In this document: in pieces, positions 4,653 to 31,582 of the stretch
Numbering within the stretch: position 1 is the stretch's first letter
Layout of the letters: every line of letters begins with the position of its first letter
Assembly (NCBI GenBank): GCA_019913005.1
Contig: JAIOHL010000320.1
Location: 1-43,057, forward strand
DNA from: Anaerolineae bacterium
GTDB lineage: Bacteria > Chloroflexota > Anaerolineae > Aggregatilineales > J027
DNA: 43,057 nt
Direction: 5' to 3'
Made by a program: the position numbers and the translations under genes
The notes under the pieces: generated by a model
What the model was told of the DNA's origin: nothing
What the model saw: the letters and a program-made list of their open reading frames with translations, nothing else
Databases searched by the model: none

Positions 4653-6266
4653 GTGTCCGCTGAAAATCCTTCACTAAGTCGTCATCCCATTTTACAACTT
4701 GTCACTCAATTAACCCGCTCCGACCTCCTGCTCATTCTATTGATTGGGCTGGTGGCTTTTTCGGCGCGGGTGATACCCGAACCCCGTACCGTTGACGATG
4801 CCTTTATTACCTTTCGCTACAGCCGCAATCTCGTCGAGGCGGAAGGCTTCGTTTACAACCCCGACAGCAAGGTATTAGGCACTACTACCCCGCTTTATAC
4901 CCTGCTGATGGCGGGTTTTGGTGGGATTATGGGCGATCATTATCAGTGGTACGCCCTATTCATCAACGCCCTTGCCGATACCCTTTCCGTTGTGCTGCTT
5001 TATCTGCTGGCGCGATATTTAACAGGCAGTCGTCTGGCGGGTGGGCTTTTGGGACTGCTGTGGGCATTACTTTCCTACAGTGTCACTTTTGCCATTGGCG
5101 GTATGGAAACCAGCGTCCACAACTTGCTGATGATTGCCGCATGGGTCACCTATCTGGATAAGCAGCGTGGTTGGGTCGGTACGTTGGTGGCGTTGGGTCT
5201 CCTGACCCGTCCCGATGCCCTATTATGGGCCGCCCCGCTGATGCTCCATCAATTATGGACGGCATGGCGTGAACGCACCGCCGATCAAAATTTATGGTCA
5301 TGGCTACCCCTGCCGGATTATGTTGCCGGACTCATCATCGGCCTTCCTTGGGTCATCTTTGCCACGCTCTATTTTGGCAGCCCTCTGCCCCATACCATCG
5401 GCACAAAATCAGTGGTCTATCAAGTAGATGGCACGCAGGCCCTGATTAAGATGCTGCAACAGTTCGCCAATCCGATTGATCAATTTGAAATCTTGGGGCC
5501 AGTTGTGGGCACAGGTATCGGCTTGATTTTATTTCCTTTTCTGGCATTGGTCGGTCTTCGGGCAATGTTAAAACCCTACCCCCGTACCCTGCCGATTTTT
5601 CTCCATGCGTGGCTCTATCTCATTGTTTTTAGCGCCACCAATCCCTTGATTTTCCGCTGGTATCTGACCCCGCCCATGCCTGCCTATTTGTTGGCAATCG
5701 TCTGCGGCGCGTATTCATTAGGTCAGTCGCTCACGCCGTCAATTGGAGCACAGCGACTCAAATTCGTGGCCTATGGCTTGAGTGCCTTTGCCGTACTATG
5801 TGTCTTAGCAGGCTGGCAGCTAAAACCCGACCATCGCCCCAATCGCCCTGCCCCCAAAATGGCCTTCCACGAAATCGAATTGAATTATCAAACCGTTGCC
5901 GAGCGCCTTGTCCGTGAAGAAAATATCGGGCCAGACACCCTCATTGCTGCCGGGGATATTGGCGCAGTCGGTTTTTTCAGCCATGCCCGTATTTTGGATA
6001 CTATCGGCCTTGTCACCCATGATTTAAATCACTATTACGAAACCGATGGCTACCAAGACCTGATTCCCCAAGACGGCAATTATGCTATCCCGCCCCAACT
6101 GATTTTTGACCGTCAGCCCGATTACATCATCACAATGTTAGATTTTGTCAAACTTGGCTTACAACAAGACTCCCGTTTTGCCGAGCAATATGAACTGCTC
6201 TACGAAATCAAAACCAATTATTATGGCGGCGCGATGCTGGTTTACAAACGTATCGCCGTGCAGTGA
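4653..6266 (+). CDS. GT-C fold membrane glycosyltransferase (GT39/ArnT-like)
   Basis: 537 residues starting at GTG. About ten hydrophobic segments lie between residues 22 and 390, followed by a soluble C-terminal region of about 140 residues. After the first membrane helix comes the acidic loop TVDDAFITFRYSRNL (Asp48, Asp49) and GFVYNPDSKVLGTTTPLYTLL. This is the arrangement of GT-C enzymes that take sugars from polyprenyl-phosphate carriers, with the aspartate as presumed catalytic base facing the outside. The C-terminal GDIGAVGFFSHARILDTIGL-type segment is common in bacterial members. It opens the long run of co-directional envelope-glycan genes, but a promoter follows it at 6332, so it may be a separate unit. 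Donor and acceptor sugars cannot be read from sequence. Confidence 0.8.
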   Translation: MSAENPSLSRHPILQLVTQLTRSDLLLILLIGLVAFSARVIPEPRTVDDAFITFRYSRNLVEAEGFVYNPDSKVLGTTTPLYTLLMAGFGGIMGDHYQWYALFINALADTLSVVLLYLLARYLTGSRLAGGLLGLLWALLSYSVTFAIGGMETSVHNLLMIAAWVTYLDKQRGWVGTLVALGLLTRPDALLWAAPLMLHQLWTAWRERTADQNLWSWLPLPDYVAGLIIGLPWVIFATLYFGSPLPHTIGTKSVVYQVDGTQALIKMLQQFANPIDQFEILGPVVGTGIGLILFPFLALVGLRAMLKPYPRTLPIFLHAWLYLIVFSATNPLIFRWYLTPPMPAYLLAIVCGAYSLGQSLTPSIGAQRLKFVAYGLSAFAVLCVLAGWQLKPDHRPNRPAPKMAFHEIELNYQTVAERLVREENIGPDTLIAAGDIGAVGFFSHARILDTIGLVTHDLNHYYETDGYQDLIPQDGNYAIPPQLIFDRQPDYIITMLDFVKLGLQQDSRFAEQYELLYEIKTNYYGGAMLVYKRIAVQ

Positions 6267-6331
6267 GCCTACGTTTGCCCAACCGTGTAATTACATCACG
6301 TGGGCCTGCCGTGTAGATTTGTCCACCCCTC

Positions 6332-6340
6332 TGCTATAAT
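6332..6340 (+). promoter_or_regulatory. Extended -10 promoter upstream of the flippase-like gene
   Basis: TGCTATAAT contains a perfect -10 hexamer (6335-6340) with an upstream TGn extension; no good -35 lies at standard spacing. The start site would be near 6347, leaving a leader of about 38 bases before the TTG start at 6385. It lies in the 118-base gap after the GT-C gene and is the most likely promoter for the genes that follow. Confidence 0.6.
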
Positions 6341-6384
6341 GGCGCGGCGTTAAACTTTCTGGAACATAAGACGAGTAGAGTGCG

Positions 6385-7428
6385 TTGAAAAAGTGGCTGA
6401 CATTTGGCCTCGGCGCGGTAGTCAGTGTAGGAATTTTCGTCGCGTTGGTTGGCTCGGAACTGGATGCAGTACAAGATGAATTAGCACGGGCACGGTATAT
6501 CTATCTGCTACCCTGTGCCTTGCTGCTGTTTGCGGGACTGCTAACGCGGGCCATGCGCTGGCATATCCTGTTAGATAAAAAGGTCAGTGTGTGGCACAGT
6601 TTCCACATTATGAATGTCGGCTACTTTGTCAGTTCCATTCTGCCTTTCCGCATTGGTGATTTCGCACGGGCATGGCTGACTAGCCGCCTCAAATCACCTG
6701 TTTCTGGGTTTACCTCGCTTAGTACCATTGTGGTCGAGCGTTTAGTAGATCTGCTGTTTGTCGTGTTGGTATTGGGGGTCTGCCTCGCCGTTTTGGATGT
6801 CCCAAGTGAAGTCACATCCGTTGGTGTGTTAATGGGCACTGCCGCTCTGGTTGCCCTGATTACCCTCAGCATTTTTTCTGCCCGACCCACATTAGCCAAA
6901 TCGGTCTTAAGTTGGGTCGAAGGCTGGCTGCCGATTTTGCGCCGCTTAAAATTAGATGAACGGCTTGACCATATCTTGATAGGCTTTGCACCGATTGGTC
7001 GCCCCAAAACCGCCCTAACTGTTTTCTTCTGGACGTCCTTTTCGTGGTTTTTTTCCATTCTCGCAGGATATGCTCTCCTGTTTATGCTGTTTGATAAACC
7101 CAGCATCGAAGCCGCCGCTCTGTTTGTCGTCTTGGGGTCGTTCTCCGTCGCCCTGCCCGCCGTCCCCGGCAATCTCGGCCCATTTGAAGGCGCTGTCGTG
7201 GGTGGATTATGGATTGCAGGGCTAATTGAGAAAGCCACCGCCCCCGAAAACGCTCCGGCGATTGCGTTTGCCGCGATTTTGCACGCGCTGTTGATTGCCC
7301 TGTATATTATCTTTGGGTTGATCGGGCTGTATGTCGAACACACCTCGGTACGACAGGTGCGGCGCGGCGCATCTACCCTGACCGAACATGACACCAGCGT
7401 TAAAGTATTGGCGGAGGGGGTATCGTGA
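6385..7428 (+). CDS. Flippase-like membrane protein (LPG synthase TM region / UPF0104 family)
   Basis: 347 residues, start TTG. Around eight membrane helices are visible. The family hallmarks are the loop after helix 2 (RAMRWHILLD), the SSILPFRIGDFARAWL segment near residues 88-103, a TIVVERLVDLLF motif near 116-127, and ALPAVPGNLGPFEGAV around 253-268. This family covers the membrane domain of MprF and archaeal AglD-type proteins and is often called flippase-like. A role in moving lipid-linked sugars across the membrane is inferred from context. Its stop overlaps the GTG start of the GT4 gene by four bases (GTGA), so the two are translationally coupled. The extended -10 at 6332 probably drives it. 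Confidence 0.85.
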   Translation: MKKWLTFGLGAVVSVGIFVALVGSELDAVQDELARARYIYLLPCALLLFAGLLTRAMRWHILLDKKVSVWHSFHIMNVGYFVSSILPFRIGDFARAWLTSRLKSPVSGFTSLSTIVVERLVDLLFVVLVLGVCLAVLDVPSEVTSVGVLMGTAALVALITLSIFSARPTLAKSVLSWVEGWLPILRRLKLDERLDHILIGFAPIGRPKTALTVFFWTSFSWFFSILAGYALLFMLFDKPSIEAAALFVVLGSFSVALPAVPGNLGPFEGAVVGGLWIAGLIEKATAPENAPAIAFAAILHALLIALYIIFGLIGLYVEHTSVRQVRRGASTLTEHDTSVKVLAEGVS

Positions 7429-8660
7429 ATCACACCACACCCACTGAGGAGATCGTGACCTTATTAGACGACTATCGAGGGACAGATCGCCCTTTGCGAA
7501 TTTTGGCGGCGCTGCAATTTTACTTGCCCCATCGCACGGGCTATTCCCTGCATGTTCAGCGTGTCGCCGAGGGATTAGCCGCACGCGGTCACCACGTCAC
7601 GGTCTTAACTGCCCGTCATCACATTGACCTACCCCGCGATGAAACCATTAATGGCGTGCGTATTGTACGCCTTTGGGCACCCATCAAGGTCAGTCGGGGC
7701 ATGGTGATGCCTGCCTATCCTTGGTCAATGTGGGGTTTCCTACGCCAAAATGATGTTGTCTGGCTCAATTTGCCCATGTTGGAAACTGCCCTGACCGCTT
7801 TTTTGGCGAAACGGGCACAGTGCGGCCTAATCGCCACCCATCACGGTGATTTACTGCTAGGGCCGGGATTAAAAAACCAATTTATTCAATGGTTCACTTT
7901 CCAAAATTATCGCTATATGGCAGATCGGGCTAACCGCATCATTGCCTACAGCCATGATTACGCCGACCACAGCTATTATCTGGAAGATTATCGGGATAAG
8001 GTTTCGGTGATTTTCCCGCCCATTCAAATCCCCCACCCTGAACCGCAACGGGCCGCCGAACTCCGTGAACGCTGGCAGCATAATGGTGGCCCCATCATTG
8101 GCTATGCAGGCCGCTTTGTTAAAGAAAAACGCCCCGATCTGCTGATTCGCTCCCTCGAAATCATCAACGAACATTATCCTAATGCACGGGTCGCGTTTGC
8201 GGGGGAATATGACATTAAATATGAAAATACATGGGAAGAAAACCAACCGCTGGTGCGCCGTTTTGAGGAGCAGTTGATTTTCCTCGGCCTCATTACCAGC
8301 ACCCAAGCCCTTGCCAATTTTTACGCCGCCTGTGATGTCATTGTCCTGCCCAGCGACACGGAATGTTTTGCACTGGTGCAGGTCGAGGCCATGATGTGTG
8401 GCACGCCCATCGTCGCCACCGATATTCCCGGTGCGCGGGTGCCGTTGCAAGAAACGGGCATGGGCAAAATTGTGCCGCGCGGCGATCATCAAGCCATCGG
8501 CGAGGCAGTGGTTGAAATTCTGCAAAATCCTGAGCGGTACCGGCACACCCGCGAAGAAATCGAGACTTTTTTTAATTACGATGAAACCATCAGCCGCTAT
8601 GAAAAACACATGCGGAATGCTGCCCGCACCTCGATTTACCACAAAGATGAGGTGCGCTAA
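7425..8660 (+). CDS. Glycosyltransferase family 4 (GT-B fold)
   Basis: 411 residues, start GTG overlapping the preceding stop. The N-terminal Rossmann half (about 24-200) has the GYSLHVQRVAEGLAARGHHVTVLT signature. The C-terminal half begins at GYAGRFVKEKRPD (residues 226-238; Arg230 and Lys235 are the donor-phosphate ligands of GT4 enzymes) and contains the EX7E motif Glu313-Glu321 in ECFALVQVE, followed by GTPIVATDIPGA. These features indicate a retaining, nucleotide-sugar-dependent transferase in the cytoplasm or on the inner face of the membrane. It lies between the flippase-like gene and a methyltransferase, so it could build the lipid-linked sugar used by the GT-C enzymes downstream. 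The sugar is not predictable. Confidence 0.92.
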   Translation: MNHTTPTEEIVTLLDDYRGTDRPLRILAALQFYLPHRTGYSLHVQRVAEGLAARGHHVTVLTARHHIDLPRDETINGVRIVRLWAPIKVSRGMVMPAYPWSMWGFLRQNDVVWLNLPMLETALTAFLAKRAQCGLIATHHGDLLLGPGLKNQFIQWFTFQNYRYMADRANRIIAYSHDYADHSYYLEDYRDKVSVIFPPIQIPHPEPQRAAELRERWQHNGGPIIGYAGRFVKEKRPDLLIRSLEIINEHYPNARVAFAGEYDIKYENTWEENQPLVRRFEEQLIFLGLITSTQALANFYAACDVIVLPSDTECFALVQVEAMMCGTPIVATDIPGARVPLQETGMGKIVPRGDHQAIGEAVVEILQNPERYRHTREEIETFFNYDETISRYEKHMRNAARTSIYHKDEVR

Positions 8661-9512
8661 ATGGCTGTAGATAGACAAACCATAACCCGCCTCACTCGTA
8701 ATGAAGCGGATATGGCCTTTAAAAAGCGGGTTGAGACCATTTTTGAGTGGCTTCCCCCCGGCGACGATCAAGTCATATTAGATTGTGCCTGTGGTCGTGG
8801 CTTTTATTTGAATTACTATCGGCACGTCAGCAGTGTAAAGTTGATTGGGTTGGAACTCGAAAGTGACATTATCCGCAAGGCGCAAGCCAATGTCGGTCAC
8901 CTGCCCGATATTTTGTTGACCCAAGCCAATATCTACCACCTGCCCTTTGCCGACAGCAGTTTTGATGGCGTCATCCTCAGCGAAATTTTGGAGCATGTGG
9001 ATAACGATGTCGCAGGCCTCAAAGAGGTCTACCGGGTACTGAAACCGGGCGGGGTCGCCGCCATTACCGTGCCCAACGCCAATTATCCGTTCCTGTGGGA
9101 TCCCATCAATCGCACGCTGGAAAATGTCTTTCACACCAAAATTCGACATGGGCCACTGGCAGGCATTTGGGCCAATCATGTCCGACTCTATACAATCGAG
9201 CAATTGCGGAAAGCGGTCTCTTCTGCTGGATTCATGATAGAACAGGAACGTGCCTTTACGCACTACAGCTTTCCTTTTATTCACAATCTGGTGTATGGTC
9301 TAGGCAAACCCTTGCTCGAAAGTGGCCTCATGCCCGATAATCTGGCGGCGGCGGCTGACCGGACAACTTTTGATCAAAACGATGGCAGTTGGCGCAATCC
9401 AATTAATCTAGGTTTGGCAGTCTTGAATTTTTTTGACCGTCCCAACAAATTGGATGAGCCGCTGCATCGGAGTACGGTAAACTTGTGCATCAAAGCGCGT
9501 AAAAAAGCCTAA
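8661..9512 (+). CDS. Class I SAM-dependent methyltransferase
   Basis: 283 residues. Motif I is DCACGRG (residues 41-47). A second acidic residue lies in IGLELESD (about 63-69). VILSEILEHVDND (104-116) is the post-motif II strand, and LKPGG (127-131) the motif III loop, the usual order for the Methyltransf_11 family. The ATG directly follows the GT4 stop, with GAGG about eight bases upstream. The neighbours are glycosyltransferases, so the substrate is likely a sugar, lipid-linked glycan or other envelope precursor; this is an inference. The C-terminal 130 residues extend beyond the core fold and contain a TNHVRLYTIEQL-like region, common in methyltransferases of surface-polysaccharide clusters. 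Confidence 0.88.
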   Translation: MAVDRQTITRLTRNEADMAFKKRVETIFEWLPPGDDQVILDCACGRGFYLNYYRHVSSVKLIGLELESDIIRKAQANVGHLPDILLTQANIYHLPFADSSFDGVILSEILEHVDNDVAGLKEVYRVLKPGGVAAITVPNANYPFLWDPINRTLENVFHTKIRHGPLAGIWANHVRLYTIEQLRKAVSSAGFMIEQERAFTHYSFPFIHNLVYGLGKPLLESGLMPDNLAAAADRTTFDQNDGSWRNPINLGLAVLNFFDRPNKLDEPLHRSTVNLCIKARKKA

Positions 9513-9542
9513 TTTATCATCTTATGCCTTTAAACCGGACGC

Positions 9543-12293: not shown

Positions 12294-12300
12294 AACACCC

Positions 12301-15300
12301 ATGACTGACGCCGAGAACCGATTCCCAGACACGATTGAGACATCCCCCGGCCTTGAACCGGATTTAGAACCTGACACCCCATCGCCAGAATCAACATCTG
12401 ATGAAGGTGATGGCGCGTCTATAGCGACACCCCAGTTTGATTACCACGAAGCCTCCACTTCGGAAAAAGCCGCCCTTGCCCGTCGCTATGAATGGGGGAT
12501 CGCAAAAATCCCTTGGGCAGATGTGTTCTGTGCGCTGGTCTTGGTCGCATTGATGGCAGGTGGCTATTGGATGCGTTCGGTTGGACGTAACTGGGACGAC
12601 TATACCCATCTCCACCCCGATGAACGCTTTTTGACGCAGGTCGCCAGCGAAATCCACTCTGATTCTCCCTTGCGTCTCAGTCAAGGCGATACGATTGCCG
12701 CCAAAGCCGCTTGCGACAAAAAATATCCTCTGCCCCCAGCGGATGTCTTGAACGCGATGTCCCCTGCTGATCAAGCCGAAGCCTATGCCGAGGCGGGCAA
12801 AGGGGGCTATTTCGATACCGCCTGTTCCAACCTCAACCCGCATAACGTCGGTTATGGTTTTTATGTCTATGGCGAATTTCCGACCTTCAACACACGCATT
12901 TGGGCCGAAATTTATAATGACCTCACTGGGGAGAGTTGGTGGACGAGTTATAACGCCGTCCAGTTGGTTGGAAGGGCGGCCAGTTCCGTCGCCGACACCC
13001 TAACCATTTTGCTCATTTTCTTGATCGGGGCACGGTTGTTTAATCGCTGGGTTGGCCTTTTTGCGGCGGGTTTTTATGCCTTTGCCGCCTTCCCGATTCA
13101 GCAAAGCCACTTCTGGACAGCCGATGTTTTCACGTCCTTCTGGGTGGTACTGACCATTTATTTTGCCGTACTGGTCATGGACAACAGCAGCGCCTATCGC
13201 CAGCGGTTTGCGGCTCTTTCTTGGGTGGTGGGTGGAATTACGATCTGGATTTGGGAGATTGTCAATCAACAAGCGAATATAAAAGGTGTAGATGCGCTCG
13301 TCCACTATGACACCGAGTTTTATGTCCCATTGTTGGTCTATGTGGCCGTTCTGCTTGTGATGGGATTTGTCAGCAGTCTTGCCGCCGAACAGCGCCGCAC
13401 CGGACTTGAGGCAGCCACCTTTGCCATTAGCGTGATTCTGCTGTTCATCTTGGCTGCTTCTGGGATAATCGGCTGGTTCGGGGCGATTGCGACGGCCTTT
13501 GTCGCCCTAGTCCTCATGCTACTCTGGATTAGCGGATTACACACTTTGGGCGGCTACACAGGCTTTTGGACTTGGATAGCAGCGGCCTATGGCCTGTGGG
13601 TATTTGATGGCTTGGCCCATTATGACCAACCTACGCTCACCCCACTCGCCGTCTATCTGGTCTTTTTCGTGATTCTAGCCTTTATTAGCTCAATTATCCG
13701 TCAGCTAAAACCCGCCTCAACCCAATACCCCGCCCATCTCGTCATCATCATATTTCTGCTGGTTTTACTGGCGGTATGGAGTGCTGCCGCGCTGATTGAT
13801 GGCACGATTTCCGTCGAGGGCTTTTTCGCCTCTCTGGTGTTGGGTACGATTATCGCCGGGGCGAATGTGGCAGGCTTGCAAGATTATGCCGGGTTCGGGT
13901 TGGCGTTTGGGGCATCCCTAGCCGGACGTGTCAATGTCGCACCCCTGCTTGGTTTGGTATTACTGGCCGTCATCATTCGGGGCTTGTTTACCATTGACCG
14001 TCGTGCCCTCCATTTTGAGCGCCAACAGCAGATCGCCCGTTTGATGGTCGGCCTCATTATCACCGCCGTATTGACCATTGCGGCCTTCCGCGTCTTGCAA
14101 CCCCATGCCTTTAACGGGCCACATATTTACAACCTGAGCATCAACAGCTATTGGCAGGATGACCTGTCCGAAGTCAGAGGTCAGGTATCGGGTAAAAGTG
14201 ACTCGCCCCCCAATCATCAATGGGCTAACCGTGTACCCTATCTGTTCCCACTGCAAAACATCGTGTTATATGGCTTGGGGGTTCTGCTTGGATTATCTGC
14301 CGTTGTTGGGGTGATATGGGCGGTGGTCAATATATTGCGCCGTCAGCCCAATTGGACGCGGGTTGCCATTCCGGTTGCGTGGGCCGTCGTCTACTTTGCC
14401 TACTTCGGCAAAAATTGGGTCACGACCATGCGCTATTTCTTGCCCATTTACGCGGTCTTGACCCTGATGGCAAGCTGGGCACTGTGGGAAGCCATCACCA
14501 TTTCCTATCGCCGCCTTAAGATCAAACCGACCACGCTGCGTCGTCTTGCCTTTGGCCTTTCGACCCTTACGCTTGCCATTGTCACGGGCTACACCGCCGT
14601 CTATGGTTATGCCTTCACCAGTATCTATCGCCATCAACTTACCCGCGTCTCCGCCTCGCAGTATTTCCAAGAATTTGTCCCCGGTGATTTTGGCCTATGG
14701 GTCAAGCGTAGTGACGGTTCGGAGCGCATGATTAATGTCGGGATTTATCCAAGCGCCCTATTCCCGCAAATCGCCCATATCGCGGATGGGGAATCCATGA
14801 CGGTTGAAATCGCCCCCGAAATCAATTCGGAATTGGTGAGTGTGGTACTGCATCGTTTGGGCGACCCCAACCGTGACCCCGACCCTGAATTGGTCTCGGT
14901 GCAAATTTGGTCAAAAGATACCGTTCAAGGCCGTGTCTTATTGGGCGAAAAGACCATCAATGCCGACCTGAACGCGGCGGGGGGTGATTTTGGAACAGAG
15001 TACAGCTTGGAATTTACCCCCCCTCTCATCCTAGCTGCCACGCTGGATTCCGTCACTCCCATCACCTATGAGGTGGTGATTACGGCGGAACAGGGTGGCC
15101 CGATCATGCTTTCGGCCAACATTTCCGATCCTATTCTGCCGATCAATCCATCGCATATTTCGATGTATCTGCGCGACCCCATTGCGGACAGTCTCAATAT
15201 CCAAGAACTCGATTTGCCCGTGTTGGATGAGCTTTCCAATGTAGCCTATTTCACTGCTGGTTCACGTCAGGAATATAGCTTCATCTCCAATTCGAACGGT

Positions 15301-18300
15301 GTGATTGACCGTATTGAGATGCCGCATGTCGGCGACCCAATAGCCGACCCCGACCCCGAAACCATGCGCGTGCTGCTGGTGGATGATTTGACAGGCCTAC
15401 AAACGGGTGGGCAGGTCACAGGCGATTTCAACATGGTGCAAGACGGCCTCCGCACCTTTGGCGTCCCCGCCACCATCGAATTTGCCGAACCCTTCCCGGT
15501 GATAAAAGGCAATGTCTATAAACTGGTGGTCATGCCGGATGATTTCTTAGGCATATTCGGTCAGGTCGTCGTAACTGAACTCCCGTGGGACGACCCCGTG
15601 CCCACCAAAGTCTGCCCCCTGCCGTCTGACATAGAGTTCTCAAAAGACAACGCTTCCGGGTTGTGTGACATTACCGACGCGGGCATTGACCCTTATGGTT
15701 CTCATTATCTCGGTGTCGAAACCCATATTGGCGAATGGGATGATGTTGAGCAAAAACGGGACTTGCTGCTGCACTACCTCAACATCGGTGATTATTTTAC
15801 CGTTTCCAGCAACCGTTTCTATGACACCCTATCCCGCATCCCCTCGCGCTGGCCCATGACCAACCGCTACTATGAGGCATTGTTCTCCGGCGAACTGGGC
15901 TTGGAATTGGTCGAGTCGTTTACGTCCTATGCCAAAGTTGGCCCGTTTGAATGGCCCGACGAGGTATTGCCTACAGATAATGACTGGCCTCCTAATTGGC
16001 GTAATGAGTTCGAGGCCGAAGAAGCCTTCCATGTTTATGACCATCCGGCGGTCTTCATTTTCCGTAAGACTTCCGAGTATTCACCGGAAAAAGCCGCTGA
16101 AATCTTGGATGTAGAACTGCGTCGCGCCGACCAAGCCTATGGTGCGTTGCTGACCGATGCCGAACCGATCAATATCATCAAATGGGATGCCTTCGACGCC
16201 ACCCAAAGTCCGACAGCCCTGCAAATTCCGCAGTTCCAACAGGAAACCCAGCGCGAGGGCGGTACATGGTCGGAGATGTTTAACCGTGATTCCATTCTGA
16301 ACAAATATCAGGTGGTCGGGTTGATCGCTTGGTGGCTGTTGATGGTCGCCGTTGGGTGGATGGTTCTGCCCATGCTGGCACTCCTGTTTCCCGGATTGCC
16401 AGATCGTGGCTTCGGCGTGGGGAAACTGCTTGGCTGGATTTTGGTGGCGTGGGCCTCGTGGTTTACCAGTTCGCTTGGCATCAGAACGTGGAATCAAAGC
16501 GGCCTGCTCGCCTTGTTGCTCATTTTGGCACTCATCAACGCGGGGATTGCCTTTTGGAAACGGCATGAGCTACTTGAATTCATTTGGGAGCGCCGCCGCC
16601 ACCTGCTGATTGTCGAAGGCATCTCGCTGGCCCTTTTCCTGCTGCTGATTGGGGTACGCCTCGGCAATCCTGACCTCTGGCATCAAAATCTCGGTGGCGA
16701 AAAACCAATGGACTTTGCCTATCTCAATGGCATCCTCCGCAGCACCACCTTCCCACCCATTGATCCTTGGTTCACGGGTGGCTACATCAATTACTACTAT
16801 TGGGGCTGGGTGCTGGTCGGTGCGCCAATTAAAGCGCTCGGCATCGTCCCCACCATTGGCTATAACTTTGCCGTCCCCACCATCTTTGCGATGACGGGTA
16901 TCGGCGCGTTCAGTGTTGCCTACAACCTTGTGCATTGGAACAACGAACGCCACCGTCAAGAACCCAAATCACGTGAGGCACATGGCCCATTAGGGAACGC
17001 CTACATCGCCGGGGTTACTGCCTTAATGTTAACCGTCCTTCTGGGCAATCTGGATACCGTGCGTGTATTTGGCAACGCTGTGGCGCAGCAAGGCGGTTGG
17101 AAAGGCCCGCAAATCCTCAGTACCGTGCGTTATAACAAGGCTGTCAGCGAATTTGAGGAAGAAAATGGCCGTCTCCCCGACCCCGAAGAAGACAAAGACC
17201 TGCGGGAAGCCGCCGACAATTACAATTTGCTGGATGAGATCAAATTTGAATTCGACAAGGCCTCGTCATGGTTAGACGGTTTCCAAGAGGGCCTACCTGA
17301 CATCCTCGATGGCAAGCCGCTCCCAATGGCATCCAACCGCTGGTATTGGGGGCCAACCCGTGTGATAGGTGATCTTCCTGAACAGCGCGGCCACAACGCC
17401 ATCAACGAAATGCCCTATTTCACCTTCCTTTACGCCGACCTGCACGCCCATATGGTTGCGATGCCTATGACGTTGTTGGTGCTGCTGCTGGTCTTAGGCG
17501 AGATTTTCGGCGCAGGGCGTGGCTTACGCGGGCCTATCACCTCAGTTTTTGCCATGTTGTTACTTGGCCTTGTCGTCGGCCTACTAAAGCCCACTAACAC
17601 ATGGGACTGGCCCACTTATATGGGGATTACCGTCGCGGGTCTGACCTTTGCAGCATGGTTGGGTCAGGGTCGTCTGCGTGGTGAAGGTGAGCCTGTCGCG
17701 TTCTATTATCGCCTGCGTCGCCTGCTCGATTTACGCAATATGTTGTCCCTGTGGCCTCTGCTCTTGGTCATCCCGATGGGCATGATGCTCCGCAGTGGCC
17801 TATATCTCTACCAAAATCGCAGCTACGAGAACAAATTGCAGCAGGGCTTCGTTCCGACTCATTGCCAGAATCTGCCCGAAGATATTCTGCAATCGCAAAT
17901 CCCGCCAGCTTGTGATGGCCTCTTGAAACCAGAGATCACCGTCAACAGTATTGCCATGTGGGGCATTGGGGCGGTGGGCCTTGTCATCGTGCTCTATATC
18001 GCCGCGATGGTCTTGATGGGCAACCGCTTTGATCGGCGCGGTATCCTCGGTTGGATCGGGTCACTGGTCGCTTTCGGGGCCTTCAGCCTCATTGCCATCT
18101 ACCCCTACGAACGTTTCTTCGCCACCGCCTATGGCAAAATCTTGCCGTGGGAAAGTGATAAAACGCCGCTGTGGGCCTATGTGGATATTCACGGCGTATT
18201 CTTGTTTATCATCTTCTCTCTGCTGATGTGGCAGACCATTCGCTGGCTCAAATCTCATAAAGTCGGCGAACTGCGCCAGTATGGGTTGGCAGCACTCGGA

Positions 18301-19413: not shown

Positions 19414-19415
19414 AA

Positions 19416-22400: not shown

Positions 22401-22691
22401 ATCCCCACCTTGCTCGGTTGGGACAATCATGAACGACAGTGGCGTGGCGATACCTACGACGATGTGGCGGGCAATCGTGAAGGCGATATTTTTACCCTCT
22501 ACACCACTGAGGATTGGAACGCCGCGCAGGATATTATAGATAAATACGGCATTGATTATGTTATGGTCGGCAATTCGGAGTTTAATACCTATGGCGGTCA
22601 AGACTCCAACGGCCTCAGCAAATTTAGCGAACTTTTAGACCCGGTTTGTCACGAAGGCAGTGTGGCCCTCTATCGGGTCAGTGCGGAATAG
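19416..22691 (+). CDS. Chlor_Arch_YYY (DUF2298) membrane protein, single-module form
   Basis: 1091 residues from the ATG at 19416, two bases after the preceding stop. The frame is open further upstream, but that part only overlaps the previous gene. The hallmark YYYFG is at residues 228-232, within a TEKPMEMAFING ... TFPPKDPWMAGYAISYYYFGY stretch that parallels the end of the preceding giant protein. Other shared landmarks are PGLSDRGY near the start, NTIFKLYYQSW, and the late TGIPTLLGWDNHERQWRG segment. Many membrane helices are present. A hydrophilic insert at about 386-401 reads DDDRDGIPNWDDTDD and resembles a thrombospondin type 3 calcium-binding repeat. Function is unknown; context suggests surface-glycan assembly. 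It and the upstream YYY module look like tandem duplicates. Confidence 0.85.
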   Translation: MAQIQQSTSSRRNSSAFNPLWLLWLIPAAAVVVSIANYFGWFYFDGVIPKFDSLRWELFTDWAGRELGDVLVWWLLVTLAGAAVFPLMFRLMPGLSDRGYTLARAAGLMLIGYIFWFLASIGVLRNEVGGMVFAWIVVIVLSLVAWFRGSDWPARAEFSAWLREHLPLIIFTEVLFLGAMIIWAFVQAHNPEITSTEKPMEMAFINGVRNSATFPPKDPWMAGYAISYYYFGYVITASLADLSGVTTGIAFKLVNPLLFAMTLTGIFGITYNLVRAGGHLRTWRVGNRHAALATGLLAAFFITIMGNLGTLLVEMPYRGYTAETPIIKDVVNADYFDFWDVRDRTGPFMVQNVTDPQTGLPAVHLLDTDTYVSPEDPVTQGYNFAPDDDRDGIPNWDDTDDAELEEAGNKWEFWWWFKQSRLIYDKKFSGGYEEAITEFPQFSFILGDNHPHVLALPFTLLIIGLATSLAMRPTKLADWEIFLYGVFFGGIVFMNAWDALYLGLLIGAEALRRLMHNGTGSLNGFGELGRVITLETRRKQNLYLVGPVFIALMLLFATSDTLGDGLSIGEILIGLILVAPVTLIVNWALDDNDWGSVVRLGGSLMILFVLFYLPWLVSFTSQSQGMSVNLIYPTRSQQLFLQFGIFGLLILPFILQQMGRAGRRIRYGAVIGLILLGLIFAIGVPLFSAYIVDSRTCPLQKGQEGLIGTLAEPARSNCQARFRLFSELRDDNEIRQVKLLGQDLGELSKTRLTLYTVYQRRLGAVIGQLALLTIAAIIMMRLFARNLNSHDTDKPTPIIDYSPGTGVALLLIAMGVVTTFVPDVIYLIDNFGNRMNTIFKLYYQSWALFSIGAAYAIFAVLNGAPNRADEENRIAPVSIFVLRGVYVVGLLYLLWGGALYPYYVVRSRALYETNLDDQLAMIEDCRAVGATDCPGVPKISLDAGPTIIQAIGTDEWKLINECFMNLEPRKNEAVLVETPGGGYTAHLGRVSMLTGIPTLLGWDNHERQWRGDTYDDVAGNREGDIFTLYTTEDWNAAQDIIDKYGIDYVMVGNSEFNTYGGQDSNGLSKFSELLDPVCHEGSVALYRVSAE

Positions 22692-22702
22692 GATTGTTTT
22701 GC

Positions 22703-24991
22703 ATGGAAGTCCCCATGAATTTAGAATCCCGTCCTACCGTCAGCGGAATACGCCTCAATATTTCCGGTGAAGTGCTGATCTATCTCGCCCTGCTGCTTAT
22801 GGCGGGTGCGCTACGCCTGATCTCCCTCGATCACGCCCCCTTGACCAACCGTGAGGCCCATGACGCTCTTGCCGCCTTACGCTTGGTCAATACGCGCGTG
22901 CCGGGGGACGCGGTGGTCGCCGACAGTCCCACGATGGCCTTTGTCAATATGCTCCTGTTTATTTTCTTGGGCAATGCCGACAGCGTGGCTCGCTTGGGTA
23001 CAGCCATCGTCGGCACATTATTGGTCTTAGGCCCACTCTTGTGGCGAGGCTTTTTAGGGCGTGTCACGGCATTGAGCTTCGCACTCTTGCTGACCTTTTC
23101 CCCAGTGGCAATGGCGGCTTCCCGCACAATGGGCGCGGCGACATGGACAATGGCAACGGTGTTTATCGGCGGCTGGTGTCTCTGGCAGTATATCCAGACC
23201 CGCAGCAATGCCTATGCCATCAGCGCGACAATGGCAGGCAGCGCGATTTTGCTCCTCACCGAAACGACAGGCATCGTGACTGCCATCGGTCTAGTATGTG
23301 GCTTGGCGCTGGCCCTGTGGTCATCCCGTAATCTAATTTCGGAAACCGACGCCAAAACGCCCGTCGAGACCCTGCGCGAAATTTCCAAATCATGGCCTTT
23401 GGTTGAAGGGCTAATGGGCGCATTAGCCTTAGTGCTGGTGGTCGGTACGGCACTGTTTTTCGCCCCATCCGGCCTGACCGCTACGGGCAACACCATCAGC
23501 CAATTTATTGACGGTATCAACCAGCGCACGGAAGGTGTCCCGTATCCTTACGCTTTTGTCGTCAGCCTACGTTATGATCTCGGCCTTGTCCTGTTTGGCT
23601 TGGTCGGCCTCTATTTCGCCTTGAGTGAGGGCAATTTCCTAACCCGCTTTTTTGCTGGTTGGTTCATGTGGGCCATTCTCGCCGCCATCCTCTACCCCGG
23701 CGCAACGCCTGATGCCGCCTTGTGGATTACCATGCCCGCCGCTGGCTTGGGGGCGTTTATCATCACCCGCATGTGCCACAGCGCCCAAACGGGTTATTGG
23801 ATTGTGCCCAATTGGGGCATCCCGGCTCATGCCATCGGGGTAGCGCTCTTACTGACAGCCCTCTCAGTGAATGGCTTGGTCGTGGGGCGTGCTTTACAGC
23901 GCGAAGCCTTCCCCGGCAATTATAAACCCATCAATTTTACTGCCACCGAAAAATCACAGGGAACACTGACTTCTGGCGCACGCATCGGCTCCTTTTACGA
24001 TCCCCAAAATTCACTCAGTACCTTCCCACTGTACGTCACGGTTCAGCCAACCGCGCTGGTGGTGCAGATTTGGCGCCTCGATGGCAACATCGCCCCCCAG
24101 CTAACCGTCTTGGACGAAAACCAGCAGGTCATCTATGGCCCATTTGCCTATCCCCAAGACAGCGGGAAAGGCATTGTTGAGCGCTTAGATTTACCCACAG
24201 GCACTTATTTTCTAAATGTTTCGCCTTCCACTGAGACTCTAAACGAACGTGGGCAATATCTGGTCATGACCTATCCCGCCGATTACAAAGAACGGGATAG
24301 CTTCTATTTGGATATTCCCTATATCCTTGCCACGTTCCGCATTTTGCAGGCCAATCCCCCCCTGCCTGTCACCGCGCCGCTGGTGTTGTTGTTCTCTCTC
24401 CTCCTGCTGATTATTCTATTTTTCTTGGTAGGTAGTCTATGGGGCAGCCGAGCCGCGTGGCGTGGATTGGGTTTAGGCATGTTGGCCTATTTCAGTCTGT
24501 ACGGTATTGGATTAGGTTGGCAGGCCAGTGTCACTTTTGCCGAAGACCCCCGTGAACTGTGGCAAAGCCGCGACACCGCCGTGAATTATGACGCGCTGGT
24601 GGACACCTTGAAATTTATGTCTCGTCAGGATAACGGTGAAGAATATCGTATTGACATCACCGCCCAAGCGCCGGATGATGGTGCATTAGCATGGGCGCTG
24701 CGTAATTTTGAACGAACCCAGTTCGTCGAAGGCATAGGCATCGAAATTAACTCCGCCGTTGTCATCGCGCCCCCCACTCCAACCGGGCAACCGTTGGACA
24801 TCGGTGCGGATTATGTGGGCCAAGATGTCATCCTGACCCGCCATTACGAACTCAGTTGGCTCAATTGGGTGGATGCCCTCGGTTGGCTGACCCTACGCGA
24901 AACCCGTTATCCAACCGTGCCAGATCAAAAGATGATGTTATGGGTACGTAAAGATGTGTATGGGGTGGATGAAGTCCTGACCAGCCAGTGA
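22703..24991 (+). CDS. GT39-like membrane protein with an inserted PPC-like beta-sandwich
   Basis: 762 residues from the ATG at 22703; an ATG at 22715 with GGAAG five bases upstream is an equally good start. After the first helix, the loop HAPLTNREAHDALAALRL occupies the place of the GT-C catalytic loop, but with only one Glu and a downstream Asp, so activity is uncertain. About ten helices follow up to residue 405. Residues about 420-530 form a soluble domain with VVQIWRLDGNIAPQLTVLDE and LPTGTYFLNVSP strands, resembling a PPC domain. Two more helices (about 550-600) and a soluble C-terminal region of about 150 residues follow. It starts 11 bases after the YYY gene, so it is probably in the same transcript. 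It may be a glycosyltransferase or an accessory subunit of the YYY proteins. Confidence 0.75.
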   Translation: MEVPMNLESRPTVSGIRLNISGEVLIYLALLLMAGALRLISLDHAPLTNREAHDALAALRLVNTRVPGDAVVADSPTMAFVNMLLFIFLGNADSVARLGTAIVGTLLVLGPLLWRGFLGRVTALSFALLLTFSPVAMAASRTMGAATWTMATVFIGGWCLWQYIQTRSNAYAISATMAGSAILLLTETTGIVTAIGLVCGLALALWSSRNLISETDAKTPVETLREISKSWPLVEGLMGALALVLVVGTALFFAPSGLTATGNTISQFIDGINQRTEGVPYPYAFVVSLRYDLGLVLFGLVGLYFALSEGNFLTRFFAGWFMWAILAAILYPGATPDAALWITMPAAGLGAFIITRMCHSAQTGYWIVPNWGIPAHAIGVALLLTALSVNGLVVGRALQREAFPGNYKPINFTATEKSQGTLTSGARIGSFYDPQNSLSTFPLYVTVQPTALVVQIWRLDGNIAPQLTVLDENQQVIYGPFAYPQDSGKGIVERLDLPTGTYFLNVSPSTETLNERGQYLVMTYPADYKERDSFYLDIPYILATFRILQANPPLPVTAPLVLLFSLLLLIILFFLVGSLWGSRAAWRGLGLGMLAYFSLYGIGLGWQASVTFAEDPRELWQSRDTAVNYDALVDTLKFMSRQDNGEEYRIDITAQAPDDGALAWALRNFERTQFVEGIGIEINSAVVIAPPTPTGQPLDIGADYVGQDVILTRHYELSWLNWVDALGWLTLRETRYPTVPDQKMMLWVRKDVYGVDEVLTSQ

Positions 24992-25012
24992 GGGATTCAG
25001 CGCTCCACTGTG

Positions 25013-25018: not shown

Positions 25019-25025
25019 AAAAATT

Positions 25026-25625
25026 ATGGACACAAAACACGACGACCCAATTCTCAATCCGTTGATGACCCGCATTCAACGCGGCGACCAAACGGCCTGC
25101 ACCGACCTGTATGACCTATATGCGCCGGGTGTCTATCGCTTGGCCTATAGCGTCTTGCTGCATCGTCAGGATGCGGAAGATGTAGTACAAGAAGTGTTTG
25201 TCTATGTCTTTCGCAATCTCAAATTGTATGATCCCAATCGGGGTCAATTCCGCACATGGCTTTATACGATTACCATCAGTCGCTGCCGCAATGCCCGCCG
25301 CCGCAAGATGCTGCCCACCGTCGCCCTAAGCGATTTATTATTGCTCGGCCTTGAACCGCACGGGCCAGAAAGCGAAAATCCAGAGGCCGCCAGTCTGCGT
25401 GAGGACGCCAACCGCGTCTTGGCCCAAGCCCTCAAAACGCTTTCATCCCGTCTGCGTGAAGCCGTCGCCTTGCGTTATGGGCAGGGATTGACCTATCGTG
25501 AAATGGGCGAAATTCTGAACATCCCGCCAAAAACCGCTGAGTCGCGCATTCGTTTGGCTCATGAAGCCCTCCGCAGTGCGATGCAGCCGAATGATATTGC
25601 ATTACTAGAGGAATTTTTAGGATAG
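25026..25625 (+). CDS. ECF-type RNA polymerase sigma factor (sigma-70 family)
   Basis: 199 residues. Region 2 spans about 24-93, with DAEDVVQEVF (49-58, the core-binding helix) and the FRTWLYTITISRCRNARRR segment for -10 recognition. Region 4 spans about 134-186, with the LSSRLREAVALRYGQGLTYREMGEILNIPPKTAESRI helix-turn-helix. Regions 1 and 3 are absent, as in ECF factors. It is followed two bases later by a membrane-anchored putative anti-sigma factor, the standard arrangement for signalling across the membrane. Position between the YYY/GT-C genes and the Agl23-like gene suggests control of envelope glycan genes, but no target promoter can be proven here. Confidence 0.93.
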   Translation: MDTKHDDPILNPLMTRIQRGDQTACTDLYDLYAPGVYRLAYSVLLHRQDAEDVVQEVFVYVFRNLKLYDPNRGQFRTWLYTITISRCRNARRRKMLPTVALSDLLLLGLEPHGPESENPEAASLREDANRVLAQALKTLSSRLREAVALRYGQGLTYREMGEILNIPPKTAESRIRLAHEALRSAMQPNDIALLEEFLG

Positions 25626-25627
25626 CT

Positions 25628-26263
25628 GTGGACATCAAGGAGCAACTTTTAGCCTATCTGGAAGGGACCCTCACTCCGGCTCAACGGCGCGAGGTCGTGC
25701 GGCGTTTGGCTACCTCGCATCAATGGCAGAATGAGCTAGAGGCCATCCAATATTCCCAATCTCAACTCAAGCGCGAAATGCCTGCGTTTGGCTGTCCTAC
25801 CCACAAGCAGTTAACCGCGCTGTTGCCGGATATATTGGAAAAATCCAAACACCCGTCACCTTTGCGCGAAAAAGTGGATTGGACACAGGGCGGGATGCTG
25901 TTGTGCATGATCGCGGTCATGTTGATGATGGTGCCTATCCTGATTCGGGCACAAACCGCTGTGCTGGCTTCGACCAATCTTAAAAATATTCCGGCGACCA
26001 CCAATACGCCTGCTGCCATTCGGGTCAACACGCTCGAAGTGCCCCGTGCAGTGGTCGCGTCGTCCAGCGGGGCGACTGTGGTCGAAGCAGTGGCCTATCG
26101 CATCCAAGCGGATTTTCAATATTGTGATCTGCGCACGGGACTCTTTTTGCCTATTTCACCCCGCACCCGCTCGGATGTCCGGGTGGTTGGGTTGACCCCT
26201 GCTCCTGTACCCGGTTCGACACTTGAACCAAGCCGCGAGGCCGCCGTTGAAACTCGTCAGTAA
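25628..26263 (+). CDS. Putative membrane-anchored anti-sigma factor
   Basis: 211 residues, start GTG two bases after the sigma-factor stop. The N-terminal segment LLAYLEGTLTPAQRREVVRRLATSHQWQNELEA (about 7-39) has the helix pattern of anti-sigma domains, but the zinc ligands of the ZAS type (HxxxCxxC) are missing. A single membrane helix is at about 88-106 and the remaining 105 residues would be outside, with no recognised sensor domain. Assignment rests on the pairing with the ECF gene, the N-terminal pattern and the single-pass topology. In the family model it would hold the sigma factor at the membrane until an external signal releases it. Confidence 0.7.
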   Translation: MDIKEQLLAYLEGTLTPAQRREVVRRLATSHQWQNELEAIQYSQSQLKREMPAFGCPTHKQLTALLPDILEKSKHPSPLREKVDWTQGGMLLCMIAVMLMMVPILIRAQTAVLASTNLKNIPATTNTPAAIRVNTLEVPRAVVASSSGATVVEAVAYRIQADFQYCDLRTGLFLPISPRTRSDVRVVGLTPAPVPGSTLEPSREAAVETRQ

Positions 26264-26276
26264 TTCGCCTTAAATC

Positions 26277-26285
26277 TGCTATACT
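26277..26285 (+). promoter_or_regulatory. Extended -10 promoter upstream of the Agl23-like gene
   Basis: TGCTATACT is a TGn-extended -10 (hexamer 26280-26285), nearly identical to TGCTATAAT at 6332-6340. It lies 14 bases after the anti-sigma stop, and the start site would be near 26292. This supports the ATG at 26327 as the translation start, since the in-frame TTG at 26285 would lie upstream of the transcript. Confidence 0.55.
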
Positions 26286-26326
26286 TGGACGACCATCTTA
26301 TACCAGAGAAGAACAATTTTCGACTT

Positions 26327-31582: not shown

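What the first reader, a model, noticed from the sequence alone, without database searches (positions are those of the whole stretch)
4653..31582. A 27 kb co-directional locus of giant GT-C proteins, two YYY modules, a flippase-like protein and an ECF switch: a candidate undescribed envelope-glycan system
Seen: six GT-C-like membrane proteins totalling about 7,400 residues, with a flippase-like protein, a GT4 enzyme, a methyltransferase and an ECF sigma/anti-sigma pair, all on the plus strand and mostly with tiny gaps. Known: GT-C enzymes use polyprenyl-phosphate sugars; Chlor_Arch_YYY and Agl23-type proteins have no established biochemical role. Inference: a dedicated surface glycan or protein-glycosylation machine controlled by envelope stress.
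Basis: partly seen in the sequence, partly recalled or inferred. Interest (0 to 1): 0.7.

Follow-up and report, generated by a model that had tools for sequence, protein, structure and literature searches.

The report
Chloroflexota giant surface-sugar transferase cluster
This bacterial DNA carries a real and widely conserved cluster of very large membrane enzymes that probably attach sugars to molecules on the cell surface, in a group of bacteria where the usual enzyme for that job was not found; a smaller version of the cluster also occurs in archaea.

Summary
4653-31582 carries 11 plus-strand genes, six of them polytopic GT-C-like proteins (7,498 aa). The core order (giant GT-C+DUF2298 protein, second DUF2298, short TIGR03663-like, TIGR03663+NHL) recurs in Chloroflexota: 54 of 66 testable named loci have a TIGR03663-type gene within 3 kb downstream of DUF2298. 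Some archaeal and Chloroflexota loci have a smaller core: DUF2298 with a GT2, a TIGR00374 flippase-like protein, a PRK07233 flavoprotein and TIGR03663. AlphaFold models give the GT-C fold to DUF2298 and to the giant protein's N-half; DUF2298's C-terminal domain matches that of AglB (Z 10.2). Profile comparison relates four of the families to archaeal AglB, with clean reversed controls. STT3 gives only weak partial matches in 35 Chloroflexota genomes, but clear ones in 21 of 21 archaeal genomes. The short TIGR03663 paralogue lacks the HDE motif in 34 of 34 rows yet always keeps one glutamate. Best reading: an enlarged multi-component extracytoplasmic glycosylation system using lipid-phosphate sugars; a surface-protein acceptor is plausible but unproven. 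The ECF switch is local (7 of 80 named loci). New variant of a known kind.

The parts
4653..6266 (+). GT-C-like membrane protein (PMT_2), 537 aa; weakly tied to the cluster
   Evidence: no relative in the neighbourhood loci
6385..7428 (+). FLIP: LPG_synthase_TM/TIGR00374 flippase-like protein
   Evidence: homologue in the same place in G240
7425..8660 (+). GT4 glycosyltransferase, no TM segment
   Evidence: a homologue is in 20 of 78 named loci
8661..9512 (+). SAM methyltransferase (Methyltransf_11/25)
   Evidence: 72% identical homologue in L168
9543..12293 (+). GTC916: membrane protein with no Pfam/NCBIfam hit; GT-C by profile comparison with AglB (HH probability 95.4)
   Evidence: a homologue lies immediately upstream of BIG in 17 of 30 testable loci
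12301..16290 (+). N-half of BIG: GT-C module with HPDE motif, beta-sandwich domains and a small C-terminal alpha/beta part
   Evidence: model of 12478-16050, pLDDT 74.9, pTM 0.73; VIA Z 27.7 to STT3, 27.1 to ArnT
16291..19413 (+). C-half of BIG: first DUF2298/TIGR03662 (YYY) module
   Evidence: 463.6 bits to TIGR03662
19416..22691 (+). YYY2: second DUF2298/TIGR03662 protein (listed ORF start 19302)
   Evidence: model pLDDT 79.7, pTM 0.86; GT-C fold
22703..24991 (+). A23s: short TIGR03663-like paralogue, HDE/HGP motif absent, single Glu kept (listed ORF start 22646)
25026..25625 (+). ECF sigma factor
   Evidence: related ECF inside the cluster in 7 of 80 named loci
25628..26263 (+). probable one-TM anti-sigma factor
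   Evidence: weak match below cut-off, position, one TM segment
26285..31582 (+). A23NHL: TIGR03663 (Agl23-like GT-C) with NHL beta-propeller and C-terminal tail; HDE..HGP motif intact
   Evidence: TIGR03663 203.9 bits; NHL E 2.6e-36; family profile against NHL structures E 1e-95

Best explanation
The locus is a Chloroflexota-expanded multi-component extracytoplasmic glycosylation system. Inferred working: polyprenyl-phosphate sugars are made in the cytoplasm (by a GT2 synthase that sits beside DUF2298 in several archaeal loci and in at least one Chloroflexota genome, and presumably lies elsewhere in this genome) and reach the outer face with the help of FLIP and/or a TIGR03663 protein. There the GT-C enzymes (the BIG N-module, the two DUF2298 modules, the TIGR03663 pair, GTC916) each move a sugar or short glycan onto a surface acceptor. 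DUF2298 would work like a distant STT3/AglB- or PMT-type transferase: conserved EKP and DPW acids in the first outer loop, a second conserved E..D.H.H motif, and an AglB-like C-terminal domain in which the WWDYG region is replaced by another strongly conserved motif. The NHL propeller and the beta-sandwiches of BIG would hold acceptor or glycan outside the membrane; GT4 and the methyltransferase would prepare or cap the glycan inside. In some lineages an ECF/anti-sigma pair would time expression. I favour a surface protein (O-glycan on S-layer- or pilin-like proteins) over a polymer. Shown here: the genes, the conserved order, the GT-C folds of two modules, profile homology to AglB, the motif patterns, the lack of a clear STT3. 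Inferred: donor, direction, acceptor and every enzymatic step.
For: Gene order: of 78 named loci with a stand-alone DUF2298, 66 have at least 1.5 kb downstream and 54 of these have a TIGR03663-type gene within 3 kb on the same strand (55 with L198, whose ORFs overlap); BIG lies upstream in 36 of 60 with at least 3.5 kb. In genomes with few contigs, chosen for having TIGR03662, a TIGR03663 place lies within 5 kb of a DUF2298 place in 19 of 32. Fold: for DUF2298 the first 25 VIA rows are GT-C enzymes (STT3 Z 15.6, 7.2 A, 478 aligned; DPY19 14.8; Pmt2 14.0; AglB 13.8; ArnT 13.0; AftA 12.4; PglB 12.1) and rows 26-27 are the isolated AglB C-terminal domain (Z 10.2, 2.8 A, 119 aligned). BIG N-half: STT3 Z 27.7, ArnT 27.1, Pmt2 25.9. 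Homology: DUF2298, BIG-N, A23NHL and GTC916 profiles against archaeal AglB give HH probabilities 94.4-97.4 (E 9e-8 to 1.5e-11); against reversed AglB 0.4-5.2; FLIP as negative control 0.1. Smaller core with GT2, FLIP and PRK07233; PRK07233 over cut-off in 34 of 35 Chloroflexota genomes and, at E <= 1e-50 among 14 controls, only in Haloferax and Methanosarcina, the same two as TIGR03662. STT3: best 26.8 bits, partial, in 35 Chloroflexota genomes. Known need: the archaellum filament of Litorilinea aerophila (Chloroflexota) carries probable O-glycans on Thr66 and Thr145, and the authors only suppose that existing bacterial machinery was repurposed (PMC12488501, passages read).
Against: No donor synthase and no acceptor gene was recognised in the window. 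DUF2298 has no sequence-level PDB match, no PF02516 hit and no direct profile match to A23NHL or GTC916 (1.2 and 2.1); its AglB profile match covers columns 358-823 of 823, not the first outer loop. The WWDYG region holds another motif, so any acceptor may differ from a sequon. Whole-model rmsd to STT3 is 7.2 A and only one Foldseek hit is at or below E 0.001. In 13 of 32 genomes no TIGR03663 place used lies within 5 kb of DUF2298. A23NHL is downstream in only 18 of 53 loci with at least 7 kb. In 12 of 20 archaeal loci none of flavoprotein, GT2, FLIP or TIGR03663 was seen near DUF2298 at the thresholds used. Systems acting on polymers use the same kinds of part, so anatomy alone does not favour a protein. 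Archaeal genomes have both DUF2298 and STT3, so DUF2298 is not simply a replacement.
Confidence: 0.6

Rival explanations
1. The system builds or decorates an extracellular polysaccharide or cell-wall lipoglycan (as Emb/Aft arabinosyltransferases or teichoic-acid and O-antigen side-chain systems do), not proteins.
For: Multi-component systems with a polyprenyl-P-sugar synthase, a flippase and a GT-C on polymer acceptors are well documented (PMC8035078, PMC11127046, passages read). BIG-N also matches EmbB and AftD (Z 15.6). GT4 and a methyltransferase, common in polysaccharide loci, lie next door.
Against: No polymerase, Wzx/Wzy, ABC exporter or LCP-type gene was recognised among the 20 window ORFs scanned. 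The closest folds for BIG-N are STT3, AglB, ArnT and PMT rather than Emb, and DUF2298 carries an AglB-type C-terminal domain.
Confidence: 0.28
2. The TIGR03663 and DUF2298 proteins are mainly carriers/flippases (as proposed for Agl23), not transferases.
For: Purified Haloarcula Agl23 translocates a lipid-linked oligosaccharide in liposomes (PMC11182771, passages read). The short paralogue lacks the HDE motif in 34 of 34 rows.
Against: NHL paralogues keep HDE in 17 of 20 rows, the DUF2298 EKP/DPW acids and the E/D/H motif are invariant or nearly so over 61 sequences, and the short paralogue keeps one Glu in 34 of 34 rows; transport alone would not obviously require these.
Confidence: 0.1
3. A mere bystander assembly: independent large membrane genes that drifted together.
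For: No TIGR03663 place used lies within 5 kb of DUF2298 in 13 of 32 genomes; GT4, the methyltransferase, FLIP and the ECF vary between loci.
Against: Order and strand of the core are kept in most named loci and parts of it in archaea; BIG-type and stand-alone DUF2298 modules fall in separate parts of the tree (a clade of 68 BIG-type plus 5 others, support 0.998), which suggests an old duplicated pair.
Confidence: 0.02

Closest known systems
Multi-component (three-component) transmembrane glycosylation systems (GtrAB-Gtr, CsbB-GtcA-YfhO, GT136 pentofuranose systems)
   Same: Polyprenyl-P-sugar synthase + flippase + extracytoplasmic GT-C; a GT2 and a flippase-like gene lie with DUF2298 in several archaeal loci and in L132
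   Different: Flippase-like part is TIGR00374/LPG_synthase_TM, not GtrA or MATE; several GT-Cs instead of one; a PRK07233 flavoprotein partner in the smaller core; NHL and beta-sandwich domains; in the window no GT2 was recognised in the cluster
Haloferax AglD/AglR/AglS mannose addition to the S-layer N-glycan
   Same: Dolichol-phosphate sugar made inside, moved out, then transferred outside by a dedicated transferase (PMC3871713, passages read); a GT2-FLIP fusion (AglD-like by recalled architecture) lies beside DUF2298 in L238, L239 and L256
   Different: AglS was not compared here; no such N-glycan acceptor is known to me in Chloroflexota
STT3/AglB/PglB oligosaccharyltransferases (GT66, PF02516)
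   Same: GT-C fold and C-terminal globular domain; profile homology
   Different: No PF02516 match; the WWDYG region faces RVSxxTGLPTxLGWxxHE; duplicated, and fused to another GT-C in BIG
Agl23 (TIGR03663)
   Same: Window 26285-31582 scores 203.9 bits against a cut-off of 126.25
   Different: Adds an NHL propeller; a motif-poor paralogue lies three genes upstream; flippase activity untested
Mycobacterial EmbA/B/C and AftD
   Same: Very large GT-C enzymes (Z 13.5-15.6 to BIG-N); extracellular beta-sandwich domains in these enzymes are recalled
   Different: Lower fold similarity than STT3, PMT or ArnT; no sequence match

Membership tests
GT-C glycosyltransferase superfamily | GT-C transmembrane fold | tested here: met
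   DUF2298 and BIG-N models: top 25 and top 40 VIA rows are GT-C enzymes; GTC916 and TIGR03663 by profile only; the 537-aa protein by a Pfam match only
GT-C glycosyltransferase superfamily | conserved acidic residue(s) in the first outer loop | tested here: met
   DUF2298 EKPM and DPW; BIG HPDE; A23NHL HDE in 17 of 20 rows; that the loop faces outside is inferred from helix positions in the models
GT-C glycosyltransferase superfamily | uses a polyprenyl-phosphate(-sugar) donor | not testable with these tools
   needs biochemistry
TIGR03662/DUF2298 (Chlor_Arch_YYY) | model score over cut-off | tested here: met
   463.6 and 403.6 bits against 300.25
TIGR03663 (Agl23), 26285-31582 | model score over cut-off | tested here: met
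   203.9 bits against 126.25
TIGR03663 (Agl23), short paralogue 22646-24991 | model score over cut-off | tested here: not met
   77.5 bits; HDE/HGP motif absent
STT3 / GT66 (PF02516) | sequence family match | tested here: not met
   no PF02516 hit for the 20 window ORFs scanned at E <= 0.01
STT3 / GT66 | WWDYG motif in the C-terminal domain | tested here: not met
   DUF2298 has RVSxxTGLPTxLGWxxHE in the region aligned to it
Multi-component transmembrane glycosylation system | polyprenyl-P-sugar synthase (GT2) in the gene set | tested here: inconclusive
   GT2 beside or near DUF2298 in L132 and in 8 of 20 archaeal loci; not recognised in the window; not searched elsewhere in the window's genome
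Multi-component transmembrane glycosylation system | GtrA- or Wzx/MATE-type flippase | tested here: not met
   the flippase-like protein is TIGR00374/LPG_synthase_TM
ECF sigma/anti-sigma pair | sigma regions 2 and 4; one-TM anti-sigma encoded next to it | tested here: inconclusive
   sigma clear; anti-sigma weak, 24.8 bits below cut-off, one TM segment

The most novel reading that the evidence does not exclude
DUF2298 and the BIG N-module are a new, unclassified branch of STT3-fold protein glycosyltransferases that carries out surface-protein (probably O-) glycosylation in Chloroflexota, where canonical STT3 seems to be missing, using an acceptor-reading motif (RVSxxTGLPTxLGWxxHExQWRG) in place of WWDYG, and working as paired assemblies in which a motif-poor Agl23 paralogue with one conserved glutamate partners an NHL-propeller Agl23 enzyme.
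Probability: 0.3. Interest if true: 0.82.

Novelty: new variant of a known kind. Interest (0 to 1): 0.62.

Why it matters
I found no described function for DUF2298 (two papers name it; passages of one were read, the other was seen only in the listing), yet TIGR03662 is over cut-off in 193 of 301 genomes of this phylum. Placing it in the GT-C fold next to AglB, often in one gene neighbourhood with a GT2, a flippase-like protein, a flavoprotein and Agl23, gives testable roles. It also offers candidate genes for how Chloroflexota, in which no clear STT3 was found, could glycosylate surface proteins such as the archaellum filament of Litorilinea aerophila.

Tried and rejected
Tried without result: a sequence-profile search of DUF2298 in the PDB gave only chance hits (mostly triosephosphate isomerases, best E 0.056). 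The promoter/terminator scan of 3800-9600 found no more sites than shuffles (8 promoter-like found, 7.0 expected; 5 terminator-like, 6.6 expected). Genes near L131/L132 such as ftsY, trpE, ilvE, purD and an MFS transporter look like housekeeping neighbours, not parts.

Considered and rejected: DUF2298 as a bacterial STT3 (no PF02516 match, no WWDYG); A23s as a decayed enzyme (the kept Glu in 34 of 34 rows argues for a changed rather than a dead protein). The HH match of A2 to A3 (98.1) is an artefact: the A3 rows include the start of the DUF2298 module.

Rows dropped: five rows labelled 's' or 'sB' are not the short paralogue (split or cut A23NHL genes L176_16509 and L199_14508; GTC916-like L185_18196 and L205_19306; a misread ORF L189_17565). 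I dropped them before stating 34 of 34 (33 named rows plus the window). None of the 34 has HDE; four (L149, L153, L176, L211) still have DE. The three of 20 NHL rows without HDE are HDD (L194), a split ORF (L176_18500) and a GTC916-like protein (L211_17318). Of 23 further rows with neither BIG nor NHL in view, 14 have HDE, 4 YDE and 5 neither.

Limits: the tree was midpoint-rooted, because the 20 archaeal sequences were not monophyletic. The clade of 68 BIG-type modules also holds 5 labelled stand-alone: taking them to be the five printed for the slightly larger clade, four begin at a contig edge (truncated BIG genes) and one is an 821-aa ORF in L170; one BIG-type label lies outside (L107, probably a stand-alone gene read with too early a start). 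The ORF caller took antisense frames in a few loci (L107, L119); this was repaired by profile search, whose printed map was cut (L154 in part to L171 in part). The named loci are the best 80 of 524 confirmed relatives, so they favour close relatives. The 33 genomes and (with G000 and G240) 58 and 82 were picked for few contigs and a TIGR03662 match, so they cannot show whether genomes without DUF2298 lack PRK07233; only G021 speaks to that. Places for one search were copied by hand, leaving out second pieces of one gene and most TIGR03663 matches weaker than about 1e-10; G021 had no place over the cut-off. The 20 archaeal loci were picked by me from the matches to span scores, and L242 is the same place as L204. 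AglB sequences came from 16 of the 25 loci L258-L282, two of them short fragments. Alignments used part of what was on hand: YYY2 60 of 77 relatives (A2), BIG 36 of 38 (A3), A23NHL 18 of 19 (A4), GTC916 18 of 20 (A5), each plus the window. Seven short or flanking window ORFs were not scanned for families.
Full report
What is in the window. The window is the whole contig C239 of a 7.6-Mb genome in 365 contigs. It is Chloroflexota, probably class Anaerolineae: most of its named relatives are, and G104, listed as same class, has a contig of the same length (246,991 b) and gene map as the Bellilinea caldifistulae contig of L203. Between 4653 and 31582 eleven genes run on the plus strand. Pfam and NCBIfam identify a PMT_2 protein, a TIGR00374/LPG_synthase_TM flippase-like protein (FLIP), a GT4, a methyltransferase, a 916-aa membrane protein without a family (GTC916), a 2370-aa giant (BIG), a second DUF2298/TIGR03662 protein (YYY2), a short TIGR03663-like protein (A23s), an ECF sigma factor, a probable anti-sigma factor, and TIGR03663 fused to an NHL propeller (A23NHL). 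The six GT-C-like ORFs total 7,498 aa and all gaps but the first (118 b) lie between -112 and +34 b; the two larger overlaps vanish with later starts.

Is it conserved? In G240, the only genome listed as same order, the order FLIP-GT4-MT-GTC916-BIG-YYY2-A23s-ECF-small gene-A23NHL is the same; the 537-aa first gene is absent there. Of 80 named loci found by similarity to DUF2298, 78 have a stand-alone DUF2298 gene. Of the 66 with enough downstream sequence, 54 have a TIGR03663-type gene within 3 kb on the same strand, mostly overlapping or within about 200 b; 36 of the 60 with enough upstream sequence have BIG upstream; 18 of 53 with at least 7 kb downstream have A23NHL; GTC916-like genes are in 25, GT4 in 20 and FLIP in 15 of 78. 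GTC916 lies directly upstream of BIG in 17 of 30 testable loci. In 32 genomes with few contigs and a TIGR03662 gene over cut-off, 19 have a TIGR03663 place within 5 kb of DUF2298; in the other 13 none of the places used is that near. Chance neighbours at such distances would be a few per cent at most (my estimate from some ten TIGR03663 matches per genome; 11 in this one). TIGR03662 is over cut-off in 193 of 301 and TIGR03663 in 191 of 301 genomes of the phylum. In a midpoint-rooted tree of 203 DUF2298 modules, a clade with support 0.998 holds 68 of 70 BIG-type modules plus 5 others, most of them BIG genes cut by contig edges; stand-alone modules lie elsewhere, so the duplicated pair looks old. 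In L128, L217, L222 (Dictyobacter kobayashii) and L223 (Ktedonobacteraceae) the BIG N-module is a separate gene upstream of DUF2298, which, with the fusion elsewhere, suggests that the two halves work together.

The smaller core. In loci without BIG in view, among them several titled Dehalococcoidia or SAR202, DUF2298 is followed by TIGR03663, FLIP and a PRK07233 flavoprotein: the flavoprotein (over 200 bits) is in 11 of 80 named loci, none of which has BIG in view, and 9 of the 11 also have FLIP. In L132 (unnamed Chloroflexota genome) a GT2, with below-cut-off matches to PgfS, AglJ and a haloarchaeal dolichyl-phosphate hexose transferase, lies between two DUF2298 genes. Of 20 archaeal loci fetched, 6 have the flavoprotein at over 300 bits, 8 a GT2 at over 180 bits, 7 FLIP (3 as GT2-FLIP fusions) and 3 TIGR03663; 12 show none of these at those thresholds. 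PRK07233 is over cut-off in 34 of 35 Chloroflexota genomes picked for TIGR03662 matches (the exception, G021, has no TIGR03662 over cut-off) and, at E <= 1e-50 among 14 controls, only in Haloferax and Methanosarcina, the two in which TIGR03662 rings.

Fold and homology. AlphaFold on 61 sequences gives YYY2 pLDDT 79.7, pTM 0.86. Foldseek's best PDB hit is AglB, E 3e-4, the only one at or below 0.001. In VIA the first 25 rows are GT-C enzymes (row 19 is a translocon entry whose chain I take to be STT3), rows 26-27 are isolated AglB C-terminal domains, then Z falls to 7.1 and unrelated proteins. The C-terminal domain (949-1089) matches 3vu0 at Z 10.2, 2.8 A over 119 residues. BIG's N-half (pTM 0.73; about 258-460 poorly predicted) matches STT3 (Z 27.7), AglB (27.4), ArnT (27.1) and Pmt2 (25.9); its beta-sandwich part matches various jelly rolls at Z 7.4-8.5. 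By sequence profile BIG-N finds AglB in the PDB at E 4.8e-5 and GTC916 at 2.6e-4. Profile comparison with AglB sequences from the archaeal genomes gives HH probabilities of 94.4 (DUF2298), 97.4 (BIG-N), 96.3 (A23NHL) and 95.4 (GTC916); against reversed AglB 0.4-5.2; FLIP gives 0.1. The DUF2298 match covers columns 358-823 of 823, so the first outer loop is not part of it. In it, AglB's WWDYG faces the LTGIP of YYY2 within the conserved RVSxxTGLPTxLGWxxHE. DUF2298 was not matched to A23NHL or GTC916 directly (1.2 and 2.1) and is the most divergent of the four.

Motifs. Invariant or nearly so in 61 DUF2298 sequences are E197 (EKP), D218 and W220 (DPW), Y228-Y230, E438, D448, H450, H452, R834, N836 and T837 (YYY2 numbering). 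Both window modules keep EKPM, DPW and D.H.H. In TIGR03663, rows with an NHL domain keep HDE in 17 of 20, while the short paralogue lacks HDE and HGP in 34 of 34 rows but has Glu at the same place in 34 of 34 (after dropping the five misassigned rows named in Tried and rejected; four of the 34 keep DE). That regularity suggests a changed job rather than decay.

STT3. PF02516 finds only partial matches of at most 26.8 bits in 35 Chloroflexota genomes (15 of 35 at E <= 0.001, 5 of 35 over the 24.5-bit cut-off, each about 90-175 of 405 positions), but 21 of 21 archaeal genomes have clear ones (best E 8e-15 to 2e-54). So a canonical oligosaccharyltransferase appears to be missing where the expanded system lives, while archaea have both.

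How it most likely works. The parts fit the logic of multi-component transmembrane glycosylation: a synthase charges a polyprenyl phosphate, a flippase turns it outward, a GT-C transfers the sugar (PMC8035078 and PMC11127046, passages read; Haloferax AglD/AglR/AglS, PMC3871713, passages read). The Chloroflexota version multiplies the GT-C step and adds propeller and sandwich domains, presumably outside the membrane. Haloarcula Agl23 translocates a lipid-linked oligosaccharide in liposomes (PMC11182771, passages read), so TIGR03663 could help flipping. The acceptor is open. A surface protein is attractive because the archaellum filament of a Chloroflexota member carries probable O-glycans at Thr66 and Thr145, and its authors only suppose that existing bacterial machinery was repurposed (PMC12488501, passages read). 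Whether that species has this cluster was not tested; two loci titled Caldilineaceae, its family, do (L175, L199).

Regulation. An ECF gene over 150 bits to the window's profile lies inside the cluster in 7 of 80 named loci: five times between the two TIGR03663 paralogues, once between BIG and YYY2, once between YYY2 and A23s; also in G240. Weaker ECF matches are in three more loci (10 of 78 with any). It is an add-on of some lineages. What it senses is unknown.

Known or new. From memory, the TIGRFAM notes already say that TIGR03662 and TIGR03663 often co-occur in Chloroflexi and archaea; I did not see them in a call. In the held library DUF2298 occurs in 2 papers: passages of one list it in a gene table, the other was seen in the listing only. 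TIGR03662 and TIGR03663 occur in none of the papers found, and PF10060 and PRK07233 in none (also 106). New as far as those searches reach: the fold and AglB relation of DUF2298 and BIG, the neighbourhood with PRK07233 and GT2 in both domains, the motif split between the two Agl23 paralogues, and the contrast with STT3. I rate it a new variant of a known kind.

Noticed in passing
window 32109-33281 (-): Protein with an N-terminal TIR_2 domain, a membrane-like middle part and a C-terminal FHA domain; unusual combination, possibly signalling or defence.
   Followed up: no
window 33278-34198 (-): Methyltransferase with an N-terminal Trm112p-like stretch, overlapping the TIR-FHA gene by four bases.
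   Followed up: no
window 35264-37885 (+): Alpha-glucan phosphorylase (TIGR02094, 854.6 bits; also 822.4 bits, below cut-off, to the Thermococcales maltodextrin phosphorylase model).
   Followed up: no
window 592-1281 (+) and 39324-41735 (-): PhoU and a WalK/PhoR-like sensor kinase lie on the two flanks of the cluster.
   Followed up: no
L143 (G000:C322; 8690-13594 of the locus): The same genome holds a second, lone BIG-type protein of 1634 aa with a GTC916-like gene on the opposite strand.
   Followed up: partly
L145 (G000:C263; 4833-9593): Two large GTC916-like genes in tandem (800 and 773 aa) in the same genome; the 26.8-bit partial STT3 match lies in the second.
   Followed up: partly
L131 and L132: ftsY lies directly upstream of DUF2298 in both loci.
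   Followed up: no
L161, L162, L165, L210: DUF2298 relatives in contigs titled Methylomirabilis, Firestonebacteria, Goldiibacteriota and Acidobacteria, with a TIGR03663-type gene directly downstream in L161, L165 and L210: spread beyond Chloroflexota and archaea, or misbinned contigs.
   Followed up: no
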